A DNA stretch of 64,000 nucleotides from Kineococcus sp. NBC_00420 (GTDB taxonomy: Bacteria; Actinomycetota; Actinomycetes; Actinomycetales; Kineococcaceae): contig NZ_CP107930.1 of NCBI RefSeq assembly GCF_036021035.1, forward strand, positions 2,170,001 to 2,234,000. Direction: 5' to 3'. A program made the position numbers and the translations under genes. Positions within the stretch are counted from its first letter, which is position 1. Each line of letters opens with the position of its first letter. Shown here one piece after another: positions 27,031-34,268 of this stretch. The notes under the pieces are model-generated. The model worked only from the letters and a program-made list of their open reading frames with translations, searched no databases and had not been told where the DNA came from.

Positions 27031-29901
27031 CTAGGCGCGGGAATCGTCCTCCGGCAGCGCGTCGGCCAGCAGTTCCGCGAGGTGCTTGGGCTTGATCCCC
27101 GTGAGGTTGTCCGACTGGGTCCGGCAGGAGTACCCGTCGGCCACGACGACCGCGTCCCCGCGCTCGCGCAGCGCGGGCAGGAACGCGTGCTCGGCGACCT
27201 TCACCGACACGTCGTAGTGGCCCTTCTCGGCCCCGAAGTTCCCGGCCAGTCCGCAGCAGCCGTTCAGGACCTTCGCCTCGACCCCGGCCTTGGCCAGCAG
27301 GCGTTCGTCGGGCGAGAAACCCATGACCGCGTGCTGGTGGCAGTGCGGCTGGACGACGGCCTTCTGGTCCACCCGCGGCGGGATCCAGTCCGGACGCCGT
27401 TCCGCGATGAGTTCCGCCAGGGTCTTCACCCGACGTTCCAGCGCGTGGGCGCGGGGGTCGTCGGGCAGCAGTTCCGCGGCGTCCTCGCGCAGCAGCGCGG
27501 TGCACGACGGTTCCAGCCCGACCACGGGGATCTCGGAGTTCCCCAGCGCGTCGAGCGACGAGCGCAGCTGCCGCTTCGCTCCGTCGAGCTGCCCGGTGGA
27601 GACCCAGGTGAGACCGCAGCAGACCTGCTGCTCGGTGAGTCGCACCTGGAAACCGAGGTGTTCGAGGAGCTTCACGGCGGCCTGGCCGACCTCGGGGGAG
27701 AAGTTCTCGGTGAAGGAGTCCACCCACAGCAGGACGGGTTCGCCCGCACGTTCGGGGCGCTGGCGGAACCACGCCCGGAACGTCTCCTCCGCGAACGCCG
27801 GCAGCGGCCGGTGCTGGTCCACCCCACCCAGCGCCCGCGCCGTCCACGCCAGCGCCGGCACCGACGTCAGGGCGTTCACGACCTTCGGCGCGTAGGAGGC
27901 GAGCTTCGACCAGCGCGGCAACCAGCCCAGGAGGTAGTGGTTCATCGGCCGCAACCGGCCCGCGTAGAACTTGTCGAGGAACTCCGCCTTGTAGGTCGGC
28001 ATGTCGACCCCGGCGGGGCAGTCCGCGCTGCACCCCTTGCAGGACAGGCAGAGGTCGAGGACGTCCTTGACCTCCTGCGAGCGCCAGCCGTCGGTGACGA
28101 GGGTGCCGTTGGCCATCTCCTGCAACAGCCGGGCCCGCCCACGGGTGGAGTCCTTCTCGTCACCGGTCGCCAGGTAGCTCGGGCACATGACGCCGCCGGA
28201 GTCGGCGCGGCACTTGCCGACCCCGACGCAGCGGTGGACGGCGCGGGTGAGGTCGCCCTGGTCCTGGGAGTAGGCGAACTTCAGTCCCGAACGACCAGGC
28301 ATGCCCAGCGCGTGCGCCGGCCGGGCCGAGGGGACGCGGAGGTCCGCGGCGACGTCGGCGGGTCGGACGATGATCCCCGGGTTCAGCAGGTCATCGGGAT
28401 CGAAGGCGCGCTTGACCTCCTCGAAGGCGGAGATCGCCTCGGCGTCGTACATCAGCGGCAGCAACCCACCGCGGGCCCGGCCGTCACCGTGCTCTCCCGA
28501 GAGGGAACCGCCGTGCTTCGCGACGAGCCGGGCGGCGTCCTCGAGGAACGCCTTCGCCACGGCGCCGCCGCCGTTCTCGTAGAGCGGGAAGTCGATGCGG
28601 ACGTGGATGCAGCCGTCCCCGAAGTGCCCGTAGGCCAGCCCGTCGACACCGTGGGTCGCCATCAGCGCGTCGAACTCGCGCAGGTAGGCCCCCAGCCGTG
28701 CGGGCGGGACGGCGGCGTCCTCCCAGCCCGGCCACGCCGGCAACCCCTCGGGGGAACGCCCGGCCAGTCCGGCGCCGTCCTCGCGGATGCGCCACAACTT
28801 CCGCGCGGCGGCGGCGGTCGGGATGACGACGGAGTCCAGCGCCCGGGAGTCGCGCACCATCGCCTCCGCAGCAGCGAGGGACTCCTCCGGGGTCTCCCCG
28901 CCCATCTCGACGAACAGCCAGCCGTCACCGCCGGGGAGGCCGTCGACGGAACCTCCGCGGCGCACGACGATGTCGGCGAGGCGACGGTCGATGCCCTCGA
29001 CGGCGAGCGGGGCGTGTTCCAGCAGGGCGGGGGTGGCGTCGGCGGCCTCGTGCATCGAGGCGTAGCCGAGGACGACGAACGTCGTCGACGGGGACTGGCG
29101 CACGAGGCGGACCCGGGCCCGCAGGATCGTCACCAGCGTCCCCTCCGACCCGGTCAGCAGCCGGGCGAGGGCGGTCCCGGTGGGCCCGCCGGTCTCGGGC
29201 AGCAGGTGTTCCAGGGCGTACCCGGACACCTGACGACCGAACGTGGCGAAGGAGGTCCGGATGGTCCCGAGGTGGCGGGAGGCCACGGCCTGCAGCTCGG
29301 CGAGGAGGTCCGCGGGCGGGGCGTCGGTCCAGTAGCGGCGGCCGTGACCGTCGAGGACCTCGAGGGCGACGACGTTGTGCGAGGTCCGGCCGTAGGCCAG
29401 CGCGTGCGATCCGCAGGCGTCGTTGCCGATCATCCCTCCGACGGTGCAGCGGGCGTGGGTCGAGGGGTCCGGCCCGAACCGCAGGCCGAGTGGCGCGGCC
29501 TGGCGCTGCAGGTCGTCGAGGATGACGCCGGGTTCGATGAGCGCGGTCATGGTCTCGGGGTCGATCTCGAGGACGCGGTGGAGGTGACGGGAGAAGTCGA
29601 GGACGACCCCCTCCCCGATCGCGTTCCCCGCGACCGAGGTGCCGGCGCCGCGGGAGGTGAACGGGACCCCGAGACGGCGGCAGACCGCCCAGACGGCTTC
29701 GACGTCCTCGACCGTGCGCGGGAAGACGACGACCTGCGGGACGACGCGGTAGTTCGACGCGTCGGTCGTGTACTCCGCGCGGCGCCGGCTCGAGGCGTCC
29801 ACGACGCCGGACCCGGTGGTGGTGCCGAGGGCGGCGTTCAGGCTGGTCAGCAGGTCCGCACCGGCAGCGGCCTCGGCGCGGGTCTCGTCGATCAGGGTCA
29901 C
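27031..29901 (-). CDS. FAD / Fe-S D-2-hydroxyacid dehydrogenase (YdiJ-like GlcD-GlcF fusion)
   Basis: 956 residues. The N-terminal half is a PCMH flavin domain (VVVFPRTVEDVEAVW, TSRGAGTSVAGNAIG, PDPSTHARCTVGGMIGNDACG) with the FAD-oxidase C domain (SLSGEHGDGRARG). The C-terminal half has two 4Fe-4S clusters (CVGVGKCRADSGGVMCPSY and CLSCKGCSADCPAG) and two CCG domains (CCGLTW, CCGLAGNFG). This is the architecture of YdiJ, a D-2-hydroxyglutarate/D-lactate-type dehydrogenase feeding the quinone pool. GTG 29901 chosen after a non-conserved upstream stretch. Single-gene unit. Confidence 0.93.
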   Translation of the reverse strand: MTLIDETRAEAAAGADLLTSLNAALGTTTGSGVVDASSRRRAEYTTDASNYRVVPQVVVFPRTVEDVEAVWAVCRRLGVPFTSRGAGTSVAGNAIGEGVVLDFSRHLHRVLEIDPETMTALIEPGVILDDLQRQAAPLGLRFGPDPSTHARCTVGGMIGNDACGSHALAYGRTSHNVVALEVLDGHGRRYWTDAPPADLLAELQAVASRHLGTIRTSFATFGRQVSGYALEHLLPETGGPTGTALARLLTGSEGTLVTILRARVRLVRQSPSTTFVVLGYASMHEAADATPALLEHAPLAVEGIDRRLADIVVRRGGSVDGLPGGDGWLFVEMGGETPEESLAAAEAMVRDSRALDSVVIPTAAAARKLWRIREDGAGLAGRSPEGLPAWPGWEDAAVPPARLGAYLREFDALMATHGVDGLAYGHFGDGCIHVRIDFPLYENGGGAVAKAFLEDAARLVAKHGGSLSGEHGDGRARGGLLPLMYDAEAISAFEEVKRAFDPDDLLNPGIIVRPADVAADLRVPSARPAHALGMPGRSGLKFAYSQDQGDLTRAVHRCVGVGKCRADSGGVMCPSYLATGDEKDSTRGRARLLQEMANGTLVTDGWRSQEVKDVLDLCLSCKGCSADCPAGVDMPTYKAEFLDKFYAGRLRPMNHYLLGWLPRWSKLASYAPKVVNALTSVPALAWTARALGGVDQHRPLPAFAEETFRAWFRQRPERAGEPVLLWVDSFTENFSPEVGQAAVKLLEHLGFQVRLTEQQVCCGLTWVSTGQLDGAKRQLRSSLDALGNSEIPVVGLEPSCTALLREDAAELLPDDPRAHALERRVKTLAELIAERRPDWIPPRVDQKAVVQPHCHQHAVMGFSPDERLLAKAGVEAKVLNGCCGLAGNFGAEKGHYDVSVKVAEHAFLPALRERGDAVVVADGYSCRTQSDNLTGIKPKHLAELLADALPEDDSRA

Positions 29902-29942
29902 GTGCCCAGTGTGCCGCCGCGCGGGCCGTGCTCCGCACCCAG

Positions 29943-29999
29943 CCACCCCCACCCGATCCGTGATCTTGCCGGGTCCCCCAGCGGGATCACGGGTGGGGG
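29943..29999 (-). terminator. Terminator of the SPFH / NAD-kinase-like operon
   Basis: CCGTGATC (29958-29965) pairs with GATCACGG (29985-29992), extended by CCCCCAC/GTGGGGG after a bulge. The right arm overlaps the stop codon of the NAD-kinase-like gene (29987). It separates that operon from the YdiJ-like gene. Confidence 0.7.
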
Positions 30000-30877
30000 G
30001 TGAGGAGGGCGAGGTGGCGGGGGCTGACGTCGATCGTCAGCCGCTGGCCGCGGGTCAGGAGCAGCCGGTCCGCCTCGAGGCCGTCGCCGAAGACGACGAG
30101 CTCGTCGGAGAGCACGTCGAGGGTCAGGGGCTCGGCCCCGACCGACCCGGCGACGAGGTCGGCACCGGTGGCCCGCGAGGGCCACGCCTCGCGCACGAAC
30201 CAGGCCAGGGTCGGATCGGTGGGCCCGGGCAGGGCGGCTCCCCCACGGGCGCGGGCGAGGGAGGCGAGCCAGCCGGTGGCGCCCGTCCCGGTCCCGCAGA
30301 CGACCCCGCTGGAGGCCTGTTCCTCGCGCCGGTCCCCGCAGCCCAGCACGTAGCGGGCGGTCTGGTGGCTGTGGTGACCGACGAAGACCTCGTTGAGGGC
30401 GTGCAGCTCCTTGCCGTCGTCAGTGCGCGCACGGACCATCGTCCGCTGCTCGCAGACGGGGCGGGATATGCTGCGGTGCAGCAGGTCTCGGGCATGCGCG
30501 GCGGGGTGGCGGACCAGGACACCGGCGTTGCGACCGGGGTCGGGGTCGATGCCCACGACGACCTGGCCGTCGAGGTACTTGGCGACGTTGGCCACCAGCC
30601 CGTCCTGCCCCACGACCACGACGACGTCCTCGGGGGCGAAGAGGAACCGGGAGAGGTCGGCGCGCTCGACCGTTCCCGTCCGCCAGTCCAGGGGGACGGC
30701 CGCGGCCACCGCGACCAGGGCGGCGCGCTGACGTGCGTCGCCCGCTTCGAGGTCGTCGAGCGTGCGGCCGCGGGTCCGGAGGAAGAACTCGGCGGCCCCG
30801 CGGGTCCCGTGCCGGGCGATCGCGTCGGCGAAGGGGGTGCGGCGGTGGACCAGGACCGCGCGCGGGGCGAGGCTCAC
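29987..30877 (-). CDS. NAD-kinase-like protein with altered GGDGT motif
   Basis: 296 residues. The fold of NAD/diacylglycerol kinases is suggested by VVVVVGQDGLVANVAKYL (residues 86-102), HALNEVFVG (the conserved NE motif near 162-163) and GVVCGTGTGATGWLASL (residues 191-207, in the place of the usual TGSTAY). The signature GGDGT is here GQDGL: the Asp-Gly pair is kept but the flanking residues differ, so catalysis or substrate may have changed. GTG 30877 overlaps the SPFH stop by 4 bp. With an NrtR-like regulator across the promoter, a link to NAD(P) pools is the best inference. Confidence 0.75.
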   Translation of the reverse strand: MSLAPRAVLVHRRTPFADAIARHGTRGAAEFFLRTRGRTLDDLEAGDARQRAALVAVAAAVPLDWRTGTVERADLSRFLFAPEDVVVVVGQDGLVANVAKYLDGQVVVGIDPDPGRNAGVLVRHPAAHARDLLHRSISRPVCEQRTMVRARTDDGKELHALNEVFVGHHSHQTARYVLGCGDRREEQASSGVVCGTGTGATGWLASLARARGGAALPGPTDPTLAWFVREAWPSRATGADLVAGSVGAEPLTLDVLSDELVVFGDGLEADRLLLTRGQRLTIDVSPRHLALLTPHP

Positions 30878-31872
30878 CGGGTACCGGCCAGCTGGGCGAG
30901 GGCCCCGGTGATGACGTCCGGGGTGAGGACGAGGGTCCCGATCTCGGGCAGCTGACCGGCGAACTCCCGCAGCGCCAGAGCGAGCAGGACCTCCGGTGGC
31001 GTACCGGCGACGGCGGCCATCCGGGCGGCCTCGGCGCCGGCGTCGGCCTCGCCCTGCAACCGGGTCGCGGTGGCGTGCGCCTGCGCCAGGCGCTCCTCGC
31101 GCTCCGCCTCGGCGGTGGCCTGGACGGTGTCCGCGGCGGCGGCCTCCTCGACGGTCCGGCGCTGGTTGGCTCCGCGCTGGGCGACGAGCTGTTCCTCGCG
31201 CCGGGCGAGCTCGATCTCGTTCTGCAGCTCGTTCTCGCTGATGGCCCGTTCCCGTTCGACGGCGAGCGCCCGGCGCTGGGAGGTGGCGTGGTCGGCCTCG
31301 GTCTGCAACGCCTCCCGGGTCGGGGTGCCCAGCGCCTTCTCGACGTCGGGATCGGGGCGGACGGCGACGACGCGGGCGTCGACGAGGGCGAGGCCCGTCC
31401 TGGCGAGGCGGCTGTCGGCGGTGAGGCCCGCGGTGATGCGTTCCCGGGTCAGCGTCACCCCCCTGACCAGCACCTCGCGCAGCGGCAGCCGGGCGAGGAC
31501 GTCGAGGACGTGCTGCTGGGCGGTCTCGGTGAGCAGCCCGGCCAGTTGCTGCAGCGGGGCGTTCCGCCACCGGCCGGTCACGGGGTCGAGGGAGAAGTCG
31601 ACGCGGGTGGCGGCGAGCTCGGGGTCCTCGACGCGGAAGGTGACGGTGGCCTGGACGGTGACGTCGACGAAGTCGGCGGTGCGGGCGTGCAGGACGAGCG
31701 GGAGTTCGCGGTCGTCGACGGGCACCTCGGACAGGGCCGCGGAGAGCGGGCGGAACCAGAACGCCTGGCCGGTGCCGGAGTGCACGAGCTTCCCGCCGCG
31801 GTGGTGCACGACGTGGGTGGTCGGGGTGCTGCGCAGGTGCCGGGCGAAGGGGTAGCGGGTGATGTCGGCCAT
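30874..31872 (-). CDS. SPFH/Band-7 domain protein
   Basis: 332 residues. An SPFH domain fills about 20-200 (KLVHSGTGQAFWFRPLSAALSEVPVDDRE, DFVDVTVQATVTFRVEDP, EVLVRGVTLTRERITAGL), followed by a long charged, Ala/Glu-rich coiled-coil (about 205-290, with AVERERAISENELQNEIELARREEQ), and a C-terminal tail. There is no N-terminal membrane helix, unlike classical stomatins, so it may be cytosolic or peripheral. SPFH proteins form large ring-like oligomers. ATG 31872 has GAGGAGG upstream. First gene of the operon facing the NrtR-like regulator. Confidence 0.88.
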   Translation of the reverse strand: MADITRYPFARHLRSTPTTHVVHHRGGKLVHSGTGQAFWFRPLSAALSEVPVDDRELPLVLHARTADFVDVTVQATVTFRVEDPELAATRVDFSLDPVTGRWRNAPLQQLAGLLTETAQQHVLDVLARLPLREVLVRGVTLTRERITAGLTADSRLARTGLALVDARVVAVRPDPDVEKALGTPTREALQTEADHATSQRRALAVERERAISENELQNEIELARREEQLVAQRGANQRRTVEEAAAADTVQATAEAEREERLAQAHATATRLQGEADAGAEAARMAAVAGTPPEVLLALALREFAGQLPEIGTLVLTPDVITGALAQLAGTR

Positions 31873-31894
31873 GTCGTCCTCCTCGGGACAGTTG

Positions 31895-31949
31895 TTGTCG
31901 TCGGATTGACGATAAGCCTGCACCTCACTAATCGTCAATCCGACGACAA
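31895..31949. promoter_or_regulatory. Twin NrtR-type operators in the divergent promoter
   Basis: TTGTCGTCGGATTGACGAT at 31895-31913 is repeated perfectly as its reverse complement at 31931-31949, separated by 17 bp. Each copy is itself a palindrome: TTGTCGTC, 5-bp centre, then GACGAT(A/T)A, with 7 of 8 positions pairing in the left copy. TTGACG hexamers inside each copy point outward, with TAnnnT-like sequences 17-18 bp on in the other copy, so one site covers the -35 of one promoter and the -10 of the other. The regulator gene and the SPFH operon would both be controlled. Confidence 0.85.
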
Positions 31950-31966
31950 GCCGGTACGCTGACCAG

Positions 31967-32638
31967 GTGACCTACCCCACCGTCGCCGTCACCGTGGACC
32001 TCGTCGTGCTCACCGTCCGGTCCGAGGGACTGTCCGTCCTGCTCGTCGAACGCGGCGAGGAGCCGTTCCTCGGAGACTGGGCGCTGCCCGGGGGTTTCGT
32101 CCGACCAGACGAGGACCTGCTCGGCGCCGCCGAACGGGAACTCGCCGAGGAGACGGGGCTCCCCCGCGGTTCGGTGCACCTGGAACAGCTCGCCAGCTAC
32201 GGCGCGCCCGACCGCGATCCCCGCCAGCGCGTCGTGACGGTCTGCTACCTGGCCCTGGCCCCCGACCTGCCCACCCCGCACGCGGGCACGGACGCCGCCG
32301 ACGCGCGGTGGGTACCCGTGCGCGAGGCCCGGGACCTCGCCTTCGACCACGACCGCCTGCTCGCCGACGCCGTGGAGCGCGCCCGGGCGAAACTGGAGTA
32401 CTCACCGCTCGCGACGGCCTTCTGCGCCGAGGAGTTCACCGTCGCCGAACTGCGCCGGGTCTACGAGCAGGTCTGGGGGCACCCCCTGGACGCCCGGAAC
32501 TTCCACCGCAAGGTCACCGGGGCCGAGGGTTTCCTCGAACCCGCCGGGGCGACCACGACGCGCGACGGCGGCCGACCGGCGCAGCTGTTCCGACGCGGGA
32601 GCGCCACCACGCTGCAACCACCCCTGGTACGCACCTGA
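31967..32638 (+). CDS. NrtR-like transcriptional regulator (Nudix domain plus winged helix)
   Basis: 223 residues. The N-terminal Nudix domain (1-140) has a complete Nudix box, GFVRPDEDLLGAAERELAEE then TGL, so hydrolysis is possible. The C-terminal part (about 145-223, SPLATAFCAEEFTVAELRRVYEQVWG, NFHRKV, LFRRG) is the winged-helix domain of NrtR-type regulators, which sense NAD-derived nucleotides such as ADP-ribose. GTG 31967 follows TACGCT by 6 nt with no ribosome site, suggesting a leaderless transcript. Divergent from the SPFH / NAD-kinase-like operon across a duplicated palindromic operator, which it most likely binds. Confidence 0.88.
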   Translation: MTYPTVAVTVDLVVLTVRSEGLSVLLVERGEEPFLGDWALPGGFVRPDEDLLGAAERELAEETGLPRGSVHLEQLASYGAPDRDPRQRVVTVCYLALAPDLPTPHAGTDAADARWVPVREARDLAFDHDRLLADAVERARAKLEYSPLATAFCAEEFTVAELRRVYEQVWGHPLDARNFHRKVTGAEGFLEPAGATTTRDGGRPAQLFRRGSATTLQPPLVRT

Positions 32639-32663
32639 CAGCGACGGGGAACCCGACTAGGGT
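32635..32663 (+). promoter_or_regulatory. Predicted promoter of the ABC-2 exporter operon
   Basis: CTGACA (32635-32640), 17-bp spacer, TAGGGT (32658-32663), then 8 nt to the GTG start of the first permease gene. The -35 overlaps the stop codon of the upstream regulator gene. The short distance implies a nearly leaderless mRNA. Confidence 0.6.
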
Positions 32664-32671
32664 CGAACGTC

Positions 32672-33466
32672 GTGTCCGCCTACCCCGCCCTCGTCGCGGC
32701 GGGGTTCCGGCGGTTCTCCACCTACCGGGCCGCCACCGCGGCCGGCGCTCTCACGAACTCGGTGTTCGGCGCCATCAAGGCCGCCGTCCTCGTCGGCACG
32801 GTCTCCGGGGCCGGGAGTGCGGTCGCCGGCTACGACGTCGAGCAGGCCGCCACCTTCGCCTGGGTGACGCAGGCCCTGCTCGCCCCGGTCAACGTCTTCG
32901 CCGGCGACGAGGTCGCGCAGCGCGTGCGCACGGGGGACATCGCGGTCGACCTGGCCCGCCCGATCGACCCGCAGCTGGCCGCGTGGGCCACCGACCTCGG
33001 CCGCGCGGCGTTCATGTTCCTGCCCCGCGGCGTCCCACCCCTCGTGCTGGGGATCCTGCTCACCGGACTCGCGCTGCCGAGCGATCCGCGCAGCTACCTC
33101 CTCGGGTTCGTCAGCCTCGTCCTCGGCGTCTCGATCTCGTTCTCCGCGCGCTGGCTGGTCAGCCTGACCGCGTTCTGGCTCACCGAGATCCGCGGGATCC
33201 TCATGCTCTACACCGTCGTCGCGACGGTCCTCACCGGACTGGCGATCCCGGTCCGCTGGTTCCCGGACTGGCTCGGGACCCTCGCCCACGCGACCCCGTT
33301 CCCCTCGATGCTGCAGTCGCCCATCGACGTCCTGACCGGCACCGCGACGGGTGGCGCCGCGCTGGAACTCGTCGTGGTGCAGCTGGCCTGGCTGGCGGTC
33401 CTCGTGCTCGCCGGTCGGGTCCTGCTGGCGCTGGGGTCCCGACGACTGGTGGTGCAGGGTGGCTGA
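32672..33466 (+). CDS. ABC-2 type exporter permease (COG4587-like)
   Basis: 264-residue membrane protein with about six helices. RRFSTYRAATAAGALTNSVFG near the N terminus and DEVAQRVRTGDIAVDLARPIDPQ after helix 2 are typical of the DUF990-like permease subfamily that comes in pairs. AIPVRWFPDWLGTLAHATPFPSMLQSPIDVLTG is the conserved C-terminal loop. First gene of a three-gene exporter operon (two permeases and an ATPase); overlaps the next gene by 8 bp. Substrate unknown; drug or lipid-like compounds are candidates. Confidence 0.85.
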   Translation: MSAYPALVAAGFRRFSTYRAATAAGALTNSVFGAIKAAVLVGTVSGAGSAVAGYDVEQAATFAWVTQALLAPVNVFAGDEVAQRVRTGDIAVDLARPIDPQLAAWATDLGRAAFMFLPRGVPPLVLGILLTGLALPSDPRSYLLGFVSLVLGVSISFSARWLVSLTAFWLTEIRGILMLYTVVATVLTGLAIPVRWFPDWLGTLAHATPFPSMLQSPIDVLTGTATGGAALELVVVQLAWLAVLVLAGRVLLALGSRRLVVQGG

Positions 33467-34268
33467 GGGCTCGACGGTCGCCGCCTACCGGGCCGTCCTG
33501 GGCAGCCGGGTGCGGGCCCAGCTGAGCTACCGGACGTCCTTCGTCGCCGACCTGCTCTCCAACCTGGGCATCGGGATCAGCGAGTTCGCCACGATCTACG
33601 TCGTCTTCTCGCGGACCTCCACCCTGGGCGGGCTGGACGTGTGGCAGGCGTCGCTGGTGTTCGCGCTGGCGAACGTGGCCTTCGCCCTCGCGGACCTCCT
33701 CGCCGGTCACCTCGACAACCTGCCCACCCACGTCCGCAGCGGAACCCTCGACGCGTTCCTGCTGCGTCCCCTCCCGGTCCTCGCCCAGCTGGCGACCTCC
33801 GACGTCTCGTTGCGCCGGATCGGTCGGGTGCTGGTCGGTGTCGTGGTGCTGTGCGTCGCGTGGCCGCACACCGGCATCGCGCTCGACCTGCGCGCCGTGG
33901 CCCTGCTCGCCACCGCGGTCGTCGGCGGGACCGCGATCTTCTCGGCGTTGTTCGTCATCGCGGGTGCCTGCCAGTTCTGGTTGCTCGACGGGAAGGAAGC
34001 GGTGAACTCCCTCACCTACGGCGGTTCCAACGCGGCGCAGTACCCCGCCTCGCTCTACGGGACACCGCTGCGGTGGTTGTTCTGCTACGTCGTCCCGGCG
34101 GCGTTCGTCGCCTACCTCCCCGTCCTGGCTCTGCTGGGGAACGACGGGCCCGCCGGCCTGCCCTCCTGGCTCGGGTGGTTCTCGCCGGTCGCGGCCGCCG
34201 CGCTCTGGAGCGTCGCCCTGCTGCTGTGGCGCCAGGGGATCCGGCACTACACGGGGAGCGGATCGTGA
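33459..34268 (+). CDS. ABC-2 type exporter permease (COG3694-like)
   Basis: 269 residues, second permease of the pair. SRVRAQLSYRTSFVADLLSNLGIGISEFATIYVVFSR is typical of this family, as are GHLDNLPTHVRSGTLDAFLLRPLP and NSLTYGGSNAAQYPASLYG. GTG 33459 lies inside the end of the first permease gene; the stop overlaps the ATPase gene by 4 bp. Tight overlaps indicate a stoichiometric membrane complex. Confidence 0.85.
   Translation: MAEGSTVAAYRAVLGSRVRAQLSYRTSFVADLLSNLGIGISEFATIYVVFSRTSTLGGLDVWQASLVFALANVAFALADLLAGHLDNLPTHVRSGTLDAFLLRPLPVLAQLATSDVSLRRIGRVLVGVVVLCVAWPHTGIALDLRAVALLATAVVGGTAIFSALFVIAGACQFWLLDGKEAVNSLTYGGSNAAQYPASLYGTPLRWLFCYVVPAAFVAYLPVLALLGNDGPAGLPSWLGWFSPVAAAALWSVALLLWRQGIRHYTGSGS

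What the first reader, a model, noticed from the sequence alone, without database searches (positions are those of the whole stretch)
29987..32638. NrtR-like regulator, SPFH protein and NAD-kinase-like protein as one regulated module
Seen: a Nudix plus winged-helix regulator faces a two-gene operon (SPFH protein, then an NAD-kinase-like protein, 4-bp overlap) ending in a strong terminator. Between them a 19-bp sequence is repeated perfectly in inverted orientation (31895-31913 and 31931-31949), and each copy is itself palindromic. Known: NrtR proteins sense NAD-derived nucleotides and repress NAD genes. Inference: an NAD(P)-responsive system in which an SPFH oligomer and a divergent kinase act together, perhaps on nucleotide stress. 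I know of no described function for this trio.
Basis: partly seen in the sequence, partly recalled or inferred. Interest (0 to 1): 0.8.

Follow-up and report, generated by a model that had tools for sequence, protein, structure and literature searches.

The report
NAD-sensor-controlled SPFH and kinase pair
A bacterial gene switch of a family that senses NAD breakdown products sits on, and very probably turns off, a widely conserved two-gene operon that makes a ring- or cage-type protein and an enzyme shaped like the human mitochondrial NAD kinase; what the pair does is still untested.

Summary
The trio is real and is a conserved module. A Nudix/winged-helix NrtR-type regulator faces a soluble SPFH (Band 7) protein and a NAD-kinase-fold protein. 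In 296 genomes of the class the last two occur in the same 51, side by side. The regulator gene is divergent and adjacent in 70 of 80 named loci. The trio also occurs in Rhizobium, Methylomonas, Providencia and Moraxella.

The two palindromes are operators of the SPFH-kinase promoter: the distal one holds the -35, the proximal one the -10. The pair is kept in 76 of 82 loci, against 2 of 15,314 background segments. In 8 of 8 Streptomyces-like genomes the regulator lies far away, yet its own promoter carries the box.

The kinase is closest to human mitochondrial NADK2. It keeps the catalytic Asp, but its GGDG loop is altered (usually GQDG). The genome has two ordinary NAD kinases besides.

Effector, kinase substrate and SPFH assembly are inferred, not shown. 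The "strong terminator" is not supported. I recall, but could not check, that the SEED database already names the pair as NrtR-regulated OrfX/OrfY.

The parts
31967..32638 (+). NrtR-type regulator, 223 aa: N-terminal Nudix domain with complete Nudix box (G43..E49..R57E58..E61E62..G64) and C-terminal NrtR winged helix
   Evidence: Pfam NUDIX 3.6e-24 and NrtR_WHD 1.7e-14; PDB: BtAraR 1e-34, Shewanella-type NrtR 3gz5 9.9e-32; Nudix box and Arg29/Arg83/Arg86/His128 counts
30874..31872 (-). SPFH (Band 7) protein, 332 aa, no strongly hydrophobic segment, SPFH domain followed by a ~114-residue helix
   Evidence: Band_7 E 1e-13; AF2 model pLDDT 86.9, pTM 0.52; Foldseek HflK/C, erlin, stomatin, flotillin, prohibitin, major vault protein; hydropathy
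29987..30877 (-). NAD-kinase-fold protein (NADKL), 296 aa, nearest to mitochondrial NADK2; GQDGLVAN loop with Asp92, Asn162-Glu163, SSG...TGTGATGW
   Evidence: AF2 model pLDDT 93.7, pTM 0.89; Foldseek human NADK2 E 7.3e-19; profile vs PDB NADK2 2.5e-15; motif conservation in 91 rows
30874..30877 (-). 4-bp overlap of SPFH stop and NADKL start (GTGA)
   Evidence: a 4-bp overlap in 42 of 90 loci
31929..31949 (-). Distal operator (box 1), TTGTCGTCGGATTGACGATTA read on the - strand; contains the -35
31895..31915 (-). Proximal operator (box 2), TTATCGTCAATCCGACGACAA read on the - strand; contains the -10
31933..31938 (-). -35 hexamer TTGACG of the SPFH-NADKL promoter, inside box 1
   Evidence: only promoter-like match in 29800-32800, 0.0 expected from shuffles; TTGAC at the same offset of box 1 in 76 of 76 loci with a pair
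31909..31914 (-). -10 hexamer TATCGT of the SPFH-NADKL promoter, inside box 2, 18-nt spacer
   Evidence: TATCGT in box 2 in 48 of 49 short-spaced loci
31878..31884 (-). Ribosome binding site GAGGAGG of the SPFH gene
   Evidence: read from the sequence
29946..29999 (-). GC-rich hairpin at the operon's 3' end; not a recognisable intrinsic terminator

Best explanation
This is a locally regulated NAD-metabolism module. An NrtR dimer, acting as a repressor, occupies two palindromic operators that cover the -35 and -10 of the SPFH-NADKL promoter and lie just before the divergent nrtR gene, so it shuts off the operon and probably itself (promoter geometry shown; binding inferred). When NAD is being broken down, an NAD-derived nucleotide, most likely ADP-ribose, binds the Nudix domain and releases the repressor (inferred from the family and from invariant ligand-contact residues). 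The complete Nudix box of most actinobacterial members suggests that the regulator also hydrolyses its inducer and so resets itself (inferred). The operon then makes a soluble SPFH protein that assembles as a ring or cage, and with it an NADK2-type kinase that acts in association with it on NAD(H) or an NAD-derived compound, supplementing the two ordinary NAD kinases under conditions that consume NAD (inferred).
For: Coupling:
- SPFH (profile, E up to 1e-40) and NADKL (E up to 1e-5) are found in the same 51 of 296 genomes; by the coordinates they are neighbours on one strand in all 51.
- They are adjacent in 30 of 30 class loci; in 88 of 88 further loci the aligned stretches are at most 400 bp apart, at most 100 in 85.
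- NrtR is divergent within 250 bp in 70 of 80 named loci.
- The same order is annotated in Rhizobium, Methylomonas, Providencia and Moraxella.
- No other gene family recurs in more than 6 of 42 chosen loci (a rough ORF picker).

Regulation:
- The box pair is present in 76 of 82 loci against 2 of 15,314 background segments; TTGAC lies at offset 8 of box 1 in 76 of 76; spacings are 33-34 or 44-45, about one helical turn apart.
- This promoter is the only sigma-70-like match in the region.
- Of 27 NrtR genes in 15 genomes, the 11 with 65-72% identity to the window's have a perfect-core box upstream; the 16 with 41-62% have none.
- 25 of 32 box matches in 11 genomes that have the operon lie at these two promoters, with 1 match for the reversed control (tally by coordinates).
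- G026 has the operon, no NrtR above 48% identity, and no boxes.

Signal: Arg29, Arg83, Arg86 and His128 in 77 of 77 rows; intact Nudix box in 68 of 77.

Kinase: NADK2 is the best match by fold and by profile. The Asp of GxDG and the N-E/D motif are in 91 of 91 rows. Two canonical NAD kinases are present as well.
Against: - No binding, enzyme or expression data exist for any of the three proteins in these calls.
- The kinase motif is altered: GGDG reads GQDG in 87 of 91 rows. Of the residues listed as vital in M. tuberculosis Ppnk (PMC8553519, passages read), Asp189 and Tyr202 of region II align, by my reading, with Ser and Trp here, as in NADK2.
- Characterised NAD-pathway NrtRs have impaired Nudix boxes (PMC4666351, passages read), so this regulator may behave differently. 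All six proteobacterial trio regulators do have degenerate boxes.
- C. glutamicum NdnR responds to NAD rather than ADP-ribose.
- The loci were found through the kinase, and many are close relatives (a large Arthrobacter group), so the counts are not independent.
- 7 of 32 box matches lie elsewhere, and in the own genome weaker matches exceed the control (39 against 9).
- In the NrtR tree four box-less genes (L147, L150, L158, L162), three of them on long branches, fall in the same open cluster as the trio regulators, so the box-bearing set is not a resolved clade. One of them, L147, belongs to G246, which has the operon without boxes; only G026 is a clean case of joint absence.
- NrtR is not in 9 of 80 loci; L098 has neither adjacent regulator nor boxes.
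- Physical association of SPFH and kinase rests on linkage alone.
Confidence: 0.55

Rival explanations
1. The NADK-like protein is not a kinase any more, or acts on a quite different substrate. It is a nucleotide-binding sensor or regulatory subunit that controls the SPFH assembly.
For: GGDG is replaced by GQDG in 87 of 91 rows and by another GxDG in the rest; Asp189- and Tyr202-equivalents of Ppnk align, by my reading, with Ser and Trp; an invariant GxDGLVAN loop unlike both NAD kinases of the same genome.
Against: The catalytic Asp and the N-E/D motif are kept in 91 of 91 rows, 8 of them from proteobacteria and Treponema. The Ser and Trp also occur in NADK2, an active enzyme. Such conservation argues for catalysis.
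Confidence: 0.3
2. The palindromes are operators of some other regulator. The Nudix protein is merely a neighbour that acts as an enzyme.
For: No binding experiment; the motif differs from the mycobacterial NrtR box GTTTTCGA-N7-TCGAAAAC (PMC6800001, passages read); seven box matches lie away from the two promoters in three genomes.
Against: In 8 of 8 Streptomyces-like genomes the closest NrtR homologue lies far from the operon and has a perfect-core box 43-46 bp before the aligned start. None of 16 less similar NrtR genes has one. NrtR-family motifs are known to vary between groups.
Confidence: 0.06
3. The module is a conflict or defence system: an ADP-ribose-sensing repressor releases effectors when phage or toxin activity consumes NAD or ADP-ribosylates host molecules.
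For: Nudix-HTH repressors regulate predicted ADP-ribose-centred conflict systems (PMC9503650, section 31 read in full); patchy distribution (13 of 115 genera of the class) and presence on plasmids.
Against: No PADLOC match for SPFH or NADKL and only a weak one for the regulator. No recurrent variable effector gene seen. No relatives found in the phage records or viral contigs.
Confidence: 0.1
4. The SPFH protein is a membrane-microdomain or protease-adaptor scaffold of the HflK/C or stomatin kind, and the kinase-like protein is a client or modulator with no particular role in NAD metabolism.
For: Best fold matches are HflK/C, erlin, stomatin and flotillin. Roseomonas NADKL carries a C-terminal hydrophobic tail.
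Against: Maximum 19-residue hydropathy in the window protein is 1.39, and no row has a hydrophobic N-terminal segment. No partner gene besides the kinase recurs widely. The regulator belongs to a family whose studied members mostly sense NAD-derived ligands.
Confidence: 0.15

Closest known systems
NrtR (ADP-ribose-dependent Nudix-related repressors of NAD genes; S. oneidensis NrtR, M. smegmatis NrtR)
   Same: Nudix plus NrtR_WHD domains; divergent arrangement; palindromic operators between regulator and target; Arg equivalents of the ADP-ribose-contacting Arg41 and Arg98 (my mapping)
   Different: Target is an SPFH-kinase operon, not NAD synthesis; operator TTRTCGTC-N5-GACGAYAA; Nudix box complete in most actinobacterial members; the same genome has a second NrtR beside nadA
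Human mitochondrial NAD kinase NADK2 (ATP/polyphosphate NAD kinase)
   Same: Best fold and profile match; shares the SSG...TGTG...W segment, ALNEVF.G and the G-N/D-x-x-P-x-R-x-x-G loop
   Different: 17-18% identity in the structural alignments; GQDGL instead of GGDGT; encoded with an SPFH protein
SPFH proteins (HflK/C, stomatin, flotillin, prohibitin, erlin) and the major vault protein
   Same: SPFH domain followed by a long helix
   Different: No N-terminal hydrophobic segment; the neighbour is an NADK-fold protein. SPFH8 and SPFH9 are the soluble subfamilies of the 2009 survey (PMC2636767, passages read), but no sequences were at hand to test membership
SEED/RAST role names 'NrtR-regulated hypothetical OrfX, Band 7 protein domain' and 'OrfY, PpnK-type ATP-NAD kinase domain' (recalled; not from any call)
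   Same: If the recollection is right, the same trio was noticed by comparative genomics, probably in Rodionov et al. 2008 (not held)
   Different: No function, promoter architecture, regulator-operator tracking or NADK2 relation is known to me from there

Membership tests
NrtR family | N-terminal Nudix domain fused to NrtR winged helix | tested here: met
   PF00293 and PF21906 above cut-off; the NCBIfam NrtR equivalog model matches at 143.8 bits, below its cut-off of 400
NrtR family | Binds a palindrome between itself and its target genes | tested here: inconclusive
   Boxes present, conserved and tracking the regulator; no binding assay possible
NrtR family | DNA binding relieved by an NAD-derived ligand | not testable with these tools
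   Only ligand-contact residues checked: Arg29, Arg83, Arg86, His128 in 77 of 77 rows
NrtR family | Regulates NAD biosynthesis or salvage genes (usual, not universal) | tested here: inconclusive
   Sites with up to 2 mismatches in the own genome lie only at this operon; 39 weaker ones were not examined; nadA lies beside a different NrtR
NAD kinase | NAD-kinase fold | tested here: met
   AF2 model, Foldseek E 7.3e-19 to NADK2, then other NAD kinases
NAD kinase | GGDG motif | tested here: not met
   GQDG in 87 of 91 rows; GxDG with the catalytic Asp in 91 of 91
NAD kinase | N-E/D short motif | tested here: met
   91 of 91 rows
NAD kinase | Conserved region II (Asp189, Thr200, Tyr202 of Ppnk) | tested here: inconclusive
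   By my alignment Ser, Thr, Trp in the window protein; Ser and Trp are shared with NADK2
NAD kinase | Phosphorylates NAD | not testable with these tools
   no assay
SPFH superfamily | SPFH domain and following long helix | tested here: met
   PF01145 E 1e-13; model and Foldseek
p-stomatin or flotillin subfamilies | N-terminal transmembrane segment | tested here: not met
   hydropathy of 89 rows
p-stomatin or flotillin subfamilies | NfeD-family partner gene | tested here: inconclusive
   no gene family besides the trio recurs in more than 6 of 42 loci; NfeD was not sought by profile
Major vault protein | SPFH-type shoulder plus cap helix | tested here: inconclusive
   Foldseek matches from E 1.2e-8 with TMq about 0.45, after HflK/C and others
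Known anti-phage defence systems | Match to defence protein models | tested here: not met
   PADLOC: none for SPFH and NADKL at E up to 1; weak PDC-S07 for the regulator, 4.9e-5

The most novel reading that the evidence does not exclude
The module is an ADP-ribose-triggered cytoplasmic SPFH cage that houses an NADK2-type kinase. It would be a bacterial, vault-like compartment for converting or repairing NAD(P) or ADP-ribose derivatives when NAD is being destroyed, switched on by a repressor that also degrades its own inducer. The evidence does not exclude that the kinase has a new substrate, such as ADP-ribose or a damaged NAD(H).
Probability: 0.15. Interest if true: 0.87.

Novelty: new variant of a known kind. 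Interest (0 to 1): 0.6.

Why it matters
A soluble SPFH protein that goes with one particular enzyme in all 51 genomes of the sample that have it gives a direct test of what such SPFH assemblies are for. The enzyme's nearest solved relative is human mitochondrial NADK2, so it offers a bacterial counterpart for that branch. The proposed operators are mapped to single bases and follow the regulator from genome to genome. The inducing signal could therefore be found with one reporter or gel shift, and the physiological trigger with it.

Tried and rejected
Terminator after the kinase gene: hairpin only, no T-run, z -1.73.

Fourth module member: none seen. The next most frequent groups among 42 chosen loci are an ABC ATPase group and an antisense-like ORF group, 6 loci each. 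The simple ORF picker found SPFH in only 37, NADKL in 26 and NrtR in 23 of the 42, so a partner could have been missed.

Phage or viral carriage: no match in the phage records; in viral contigs 16 pattern matches, 0 confirmed.

Defence models.

NADKL as one of the genome's ordinary NAD kinases: rejected. Two canonical ones exist elsewhere.

Trio-type NrtR as the genome's nad regulator: unlikely. Another NrtR lies beside nadA.

Extra box matches outside the two promoters: 7 of 32. The surroundings of 6 were looked at as ORF translations by eye, without profile search, and nothing related was recognised; G073:C23 was not examined. The 39 three-mismatch sites of the own genome were not examined.

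Tree of 55 NrtR rows: Streptomyces-like box-bearing regulators fall in an open cluster with the trio regulators; their box-less paralogues form a supported separate set. Four other box-less genes also fall in the open cluster, and the deep position of the proteobacterial ones is unsure (long branches).

Joint loss of regulator and boxes: family f34 was tested in G026 and G246, not in G115. G246 has a 55%-identical NrtR on a long branch, so only G026 is clean.

Literature: ten searches listed no paper on the trio; the lists were capped (for instance 20 of 48, 20 of 203, 8 of 183), and I saw titles and starts of abstracts only, except for passages or sections of PMC6800001, PMC2636767, PMC9503650, PMC5045206, PMC8553519, PMC4666351 and PMC3634020. 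Rodionov 2008 is not held.

Membership in SPFH8/9: not testable, no sequences at hand.
Full report
WHAT IS THERE. The window lies at 2,170,001-2,234,000 of a 5.43-Mb single-contig genome. The nearest named relatives of the kinase-like protein are Kineococcus species (71-76% identity), so the host is very probably a Kineococcus (inference). Three genes form the finding: an NrtR-type regulator at 31967-32638 on the + strand; an SPFH protein at 30874-31872; and a 296-residue protein (NADKL) at 29987-30877, the last two on the - strand and overlapping by 4 bp. Pfam gives NUDIX and NrtR_WHD for the first, Band_7 for the second and nothing for the third. NCBIfam gives NAD-kinase models for the third only far below cut-off. 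The 19-bp inverted repeat is exact, and each copy is a palindrome with core TCGTC-N5-GACGA.

LINKAGE. In an even draw of 296 genomes of the class, NADKL is found in 51 at E up to 1e-5 (13 of 115 genera). The SPFH profile is found in 51 at E up to 1e-40, and the two sets are identical; by the printed coordinates the two are neighbours on one strand in all 51. In the 30 loci held from the first search they are adjacent in 30. The start of NADKL overlaps the SPFH stop by exactly 4 bp in 42 of 90 loci, and lies between -14 and +73 in 89 of 90; the exception, L070, has aligned stretches 99 bp apart, and in 88 of 88 loci checked they are at most 400 bp apart. Plasmid records hold 57 relatives. The annotated order NUDIX / SPFH / kinase-like recurs in Rhizobium etli, Methylomonas, Providencia and Moraxella. 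In Cupriavidus and Proteus, whose records list no genes there, sequence comparison shows the same layout. In Treponema the SPFH-kinase pair is intact, but a NUDIX gene lies about 4 kb away. Roseomonas, Streptomyces and Kitasatospora plasmid loci have the pair without an annotated adjacent NUDIX regulator. Among 42 chosen loci no other gene family recurs in more than 6 (rough ORF picker).

OPERATORS. Upstream of the SPFH gene, 76 of 82 loci (window, 79 of the 80 named loci, two plasmid loci; L112 left out because its SPFH is cut) have two boxes with at least 8 of 10 core matches at spacing 33-34 (49 loci) or 44-45 (27 loci). The same test finds 2 of 15,314 random segments of the same loci and 3 of 16,400 shuffled upstreams. 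The six without such a pair are L050, L091, L098, L099, L105 and L109. In one search, L091 and L105 have two good boxes at spacings 42 and 39, L050, L099 and L109 keep only the proximal box at that threshold, and L098 has none. These loci were all found through the kinase and include many close relatives, so the counts are not independent events. In the 30 class loci, two boxes are seen in 28 and none in the two of family f34. In the own genome the only sites with up to 2 mismatches to the extended box are these two; with 3 mismatches there are 39 more, against 9 for the reversed pattern.

PROMOTER. The only sigma-70-like match in 29800-32800 is on the - strand: TTGACG at 31938-31933, an 18-nt spacer, TATCGT at 31914-31909, with 0.0 expected from shuffles. 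The -35 lies in box 1 and the -10 in box 2. TTGAC lies at the same offset of box 1 in 76 of 76 loci. Taking the best -10 at spacer 16-19, 48 of 49 short-spaced loci have TATCGT inside box 2 at a 17-18-nt spacer. In the long-spaced group the listed cases (24 of 27) have a TANNNT hexamer at 17-18 nt that lies upstream of box 2, which has moved about one helical turn downstream. A protein bound to both boxes would therefore block RNA polymerase in both layouts (inference).

WHOSE OPERATORS. Streptomyces-like genomes (unnamed family f26; identity inferred from size and from the named Streptomyces loci L100, L113, L116) have no NrtR beside the operon but keep both boxes. They have NrtR homologues elsewhere, 89 kb to 2 Mb from the operon or on another contig (coordinates). 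In one search, 27 NrtR genes of 15 genomes were examined (the own trio gene and two fragments left out). The 11 with 65-72% identity to the window's have a perfect-core box upstream, 8 of them in the Streptomyces-like genomes. The 16 with 41-62% have none: the own nadA-linked NrtR, 8 Streptomyces-like paralogues and 7 more. Against a clean picture: four of these box-less genes fall in the same unresolved cluster of the tree as the trio regulators. Family f34 has the operon without boxes in both genomes tested; G026 has no NrtR above 48% identity, but G246 has one of 55% on a long branch, and G115 was not checked. A scan of 11 genomes that have the operon, with up to 1 mismatch, gives 32 sites against 1 for the reversed pattern; by coordinates 25 of the 32 are at the SPFH or nrtR promoter, and 7 are elsewhere. 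This is strong comparative evidence that the boxes belong to this regulator. It is not a binding assay.

SIGNAL. The Nudix signature is complete in 68 of 77 trio regulators, the window's included; all six proteobacterial ones and three actinobacterial ones deviate. [quoted passage not shown] Arg41 and Arg98 of Shewanella NrtR contact ADP-ribose, and the second is Gly in the arabinose sensor AraR. From the alignments I map these to Arg29 and Arg86 of the window protein; both are Arg in 77 of 77 rows. ADP-ribose is therefore the most likely ligand, but NAD (as for C. glutamicum NdnR) or another nucleotide is possible.

THE KINASE-LIKE PROTEIN. The model is confident (pLDDT 93.7, pTM 0.89, 63 sequences). 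Foldseek's top hits are human NADK2, E 7.3e-19, then bacterial NAD kinases. A profile search of PDB sequences gives NADK2 at 2.5e-15 and the next kinase at 5.6e-8. In 91 rows, 8 of them from outside the actinobacteria, GxDGLVAN is in 91, GQDGL in 87, and the N-E/D motif in 91. PMC8553519 (passages read) lists GGDG, N-E/D and region II as the NAD-kinase motifs and names Asp of GGDG as the residue that activates the 2'-hydroxyl. So the catalytic Asp is kept while the loop around it is changed. The same genome has two ordinary NAD kinases, so this is a third, specialised NADK-fold protein.

THE SPFH PROTEIN. The model (pLDDT 86.9, pTM 0.52) shows an SPFH domain and one helix of about 114 residues. 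Matches are HflK/C, erlin, stomatin, flotillin, prohibitin and, later, the major vault protein. The best 19-residue hydropathy is 1.39 in the window protein; 6 of 89 rows reach 1.6 to 1.77, at residues 122-156 and not at the N-terminus. A soluble ring or cage is therefore likely but not shown.

HOW IT LIKELY WORKS. Shown by comparison: one module, one promoter, two operators tied to this NrtR type. Inferred: repression, release by an NAD-derived nucleotide, reset by hydrolysis, and joint action of the SPFH assembly and the NADK2-type enzyme on the NAD(P) pool.

NOVELTY. The regulator and fold families are known. The combination was not seen in the listings of ten searches of the held papers (lists capped). 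From memory, the SEED database calls the two genes NrtR-regulated OrfX (Band 7) and OrfY (PpnK-type), which would make the trio a known but uncharacterised prediction. The source paper is not held. I therefore rate it a new variant of a known kind.

On re-reading the calls I replaced a grouping of NrtR genes that leaned on the boxes themselves by one on identity, added the tree rows and the G246 case that speak against it, and set the NAD-gene row of the membership test to inconclusive.

Noticed in passing
G000:C1:4392468-4394936 (L165:4469-6937): A second NrtR of the same genome lies beside nadA (PF02445 E 1.5e-94); it is probably the regulator of NAD synthesis.
   Followed up: partly
L119 (Roseomonas haemaphysalidis plasmid): The kinase-like protein has a C-terminal extension with a hydrophobic stretch, as if anchored to a membrane.
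   Followed up: no
L126 (Moraxella osloensis plasmid) and L125 (Proteus mirabilis record): The trio lies next to tetracycline genes tet(H) and tet(J). Noted only.
   Followed up: no
L121, L122, L124, L125, L126, upstream of SPFH: Outside actinobacteria other repeats stand in the same place: GTC-N5-GAC in several copies (Providencia, Proteus, Moraxella), GTTGTAC/GTACAAC palindromes (Cupriavidus), GTAGT-N5-ACTAC (Treponema). Seen by eye, not tested against chance.
   Followed up: no
L146, L151-L157: Streptomyces-like genomes carry a second NrtR paralogue (58-61% identity) without the box; its targets are unknown.
   Followed up: partly
G018:C1:439069 and 445508 (L199): Two perfect boxes 6.4 kb apart lie near unidentified genes, possible extra regulon members.
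   Followed up: partly
L122 (Treponema saccharophilum plasmid): The SPFH-kinase pair is intact, but a NUDIX gene lies about 4 kb away in the same direction.
   Followed up: no
G269:C2:1398734-1399597 (L159, L164): The closest NrtR homologue of this genome matches in two pieces, as if interrupted or with an insertion.
   Followed up: no
window 27031-29952 and 32672-34268: Neighbours: a 973-aa FAD-linked oxidase with iron-sulphur and cysteine-rich domains, and two ABC-2 membrane proteins. Not seen to recur with the module.
   Followed up: partly
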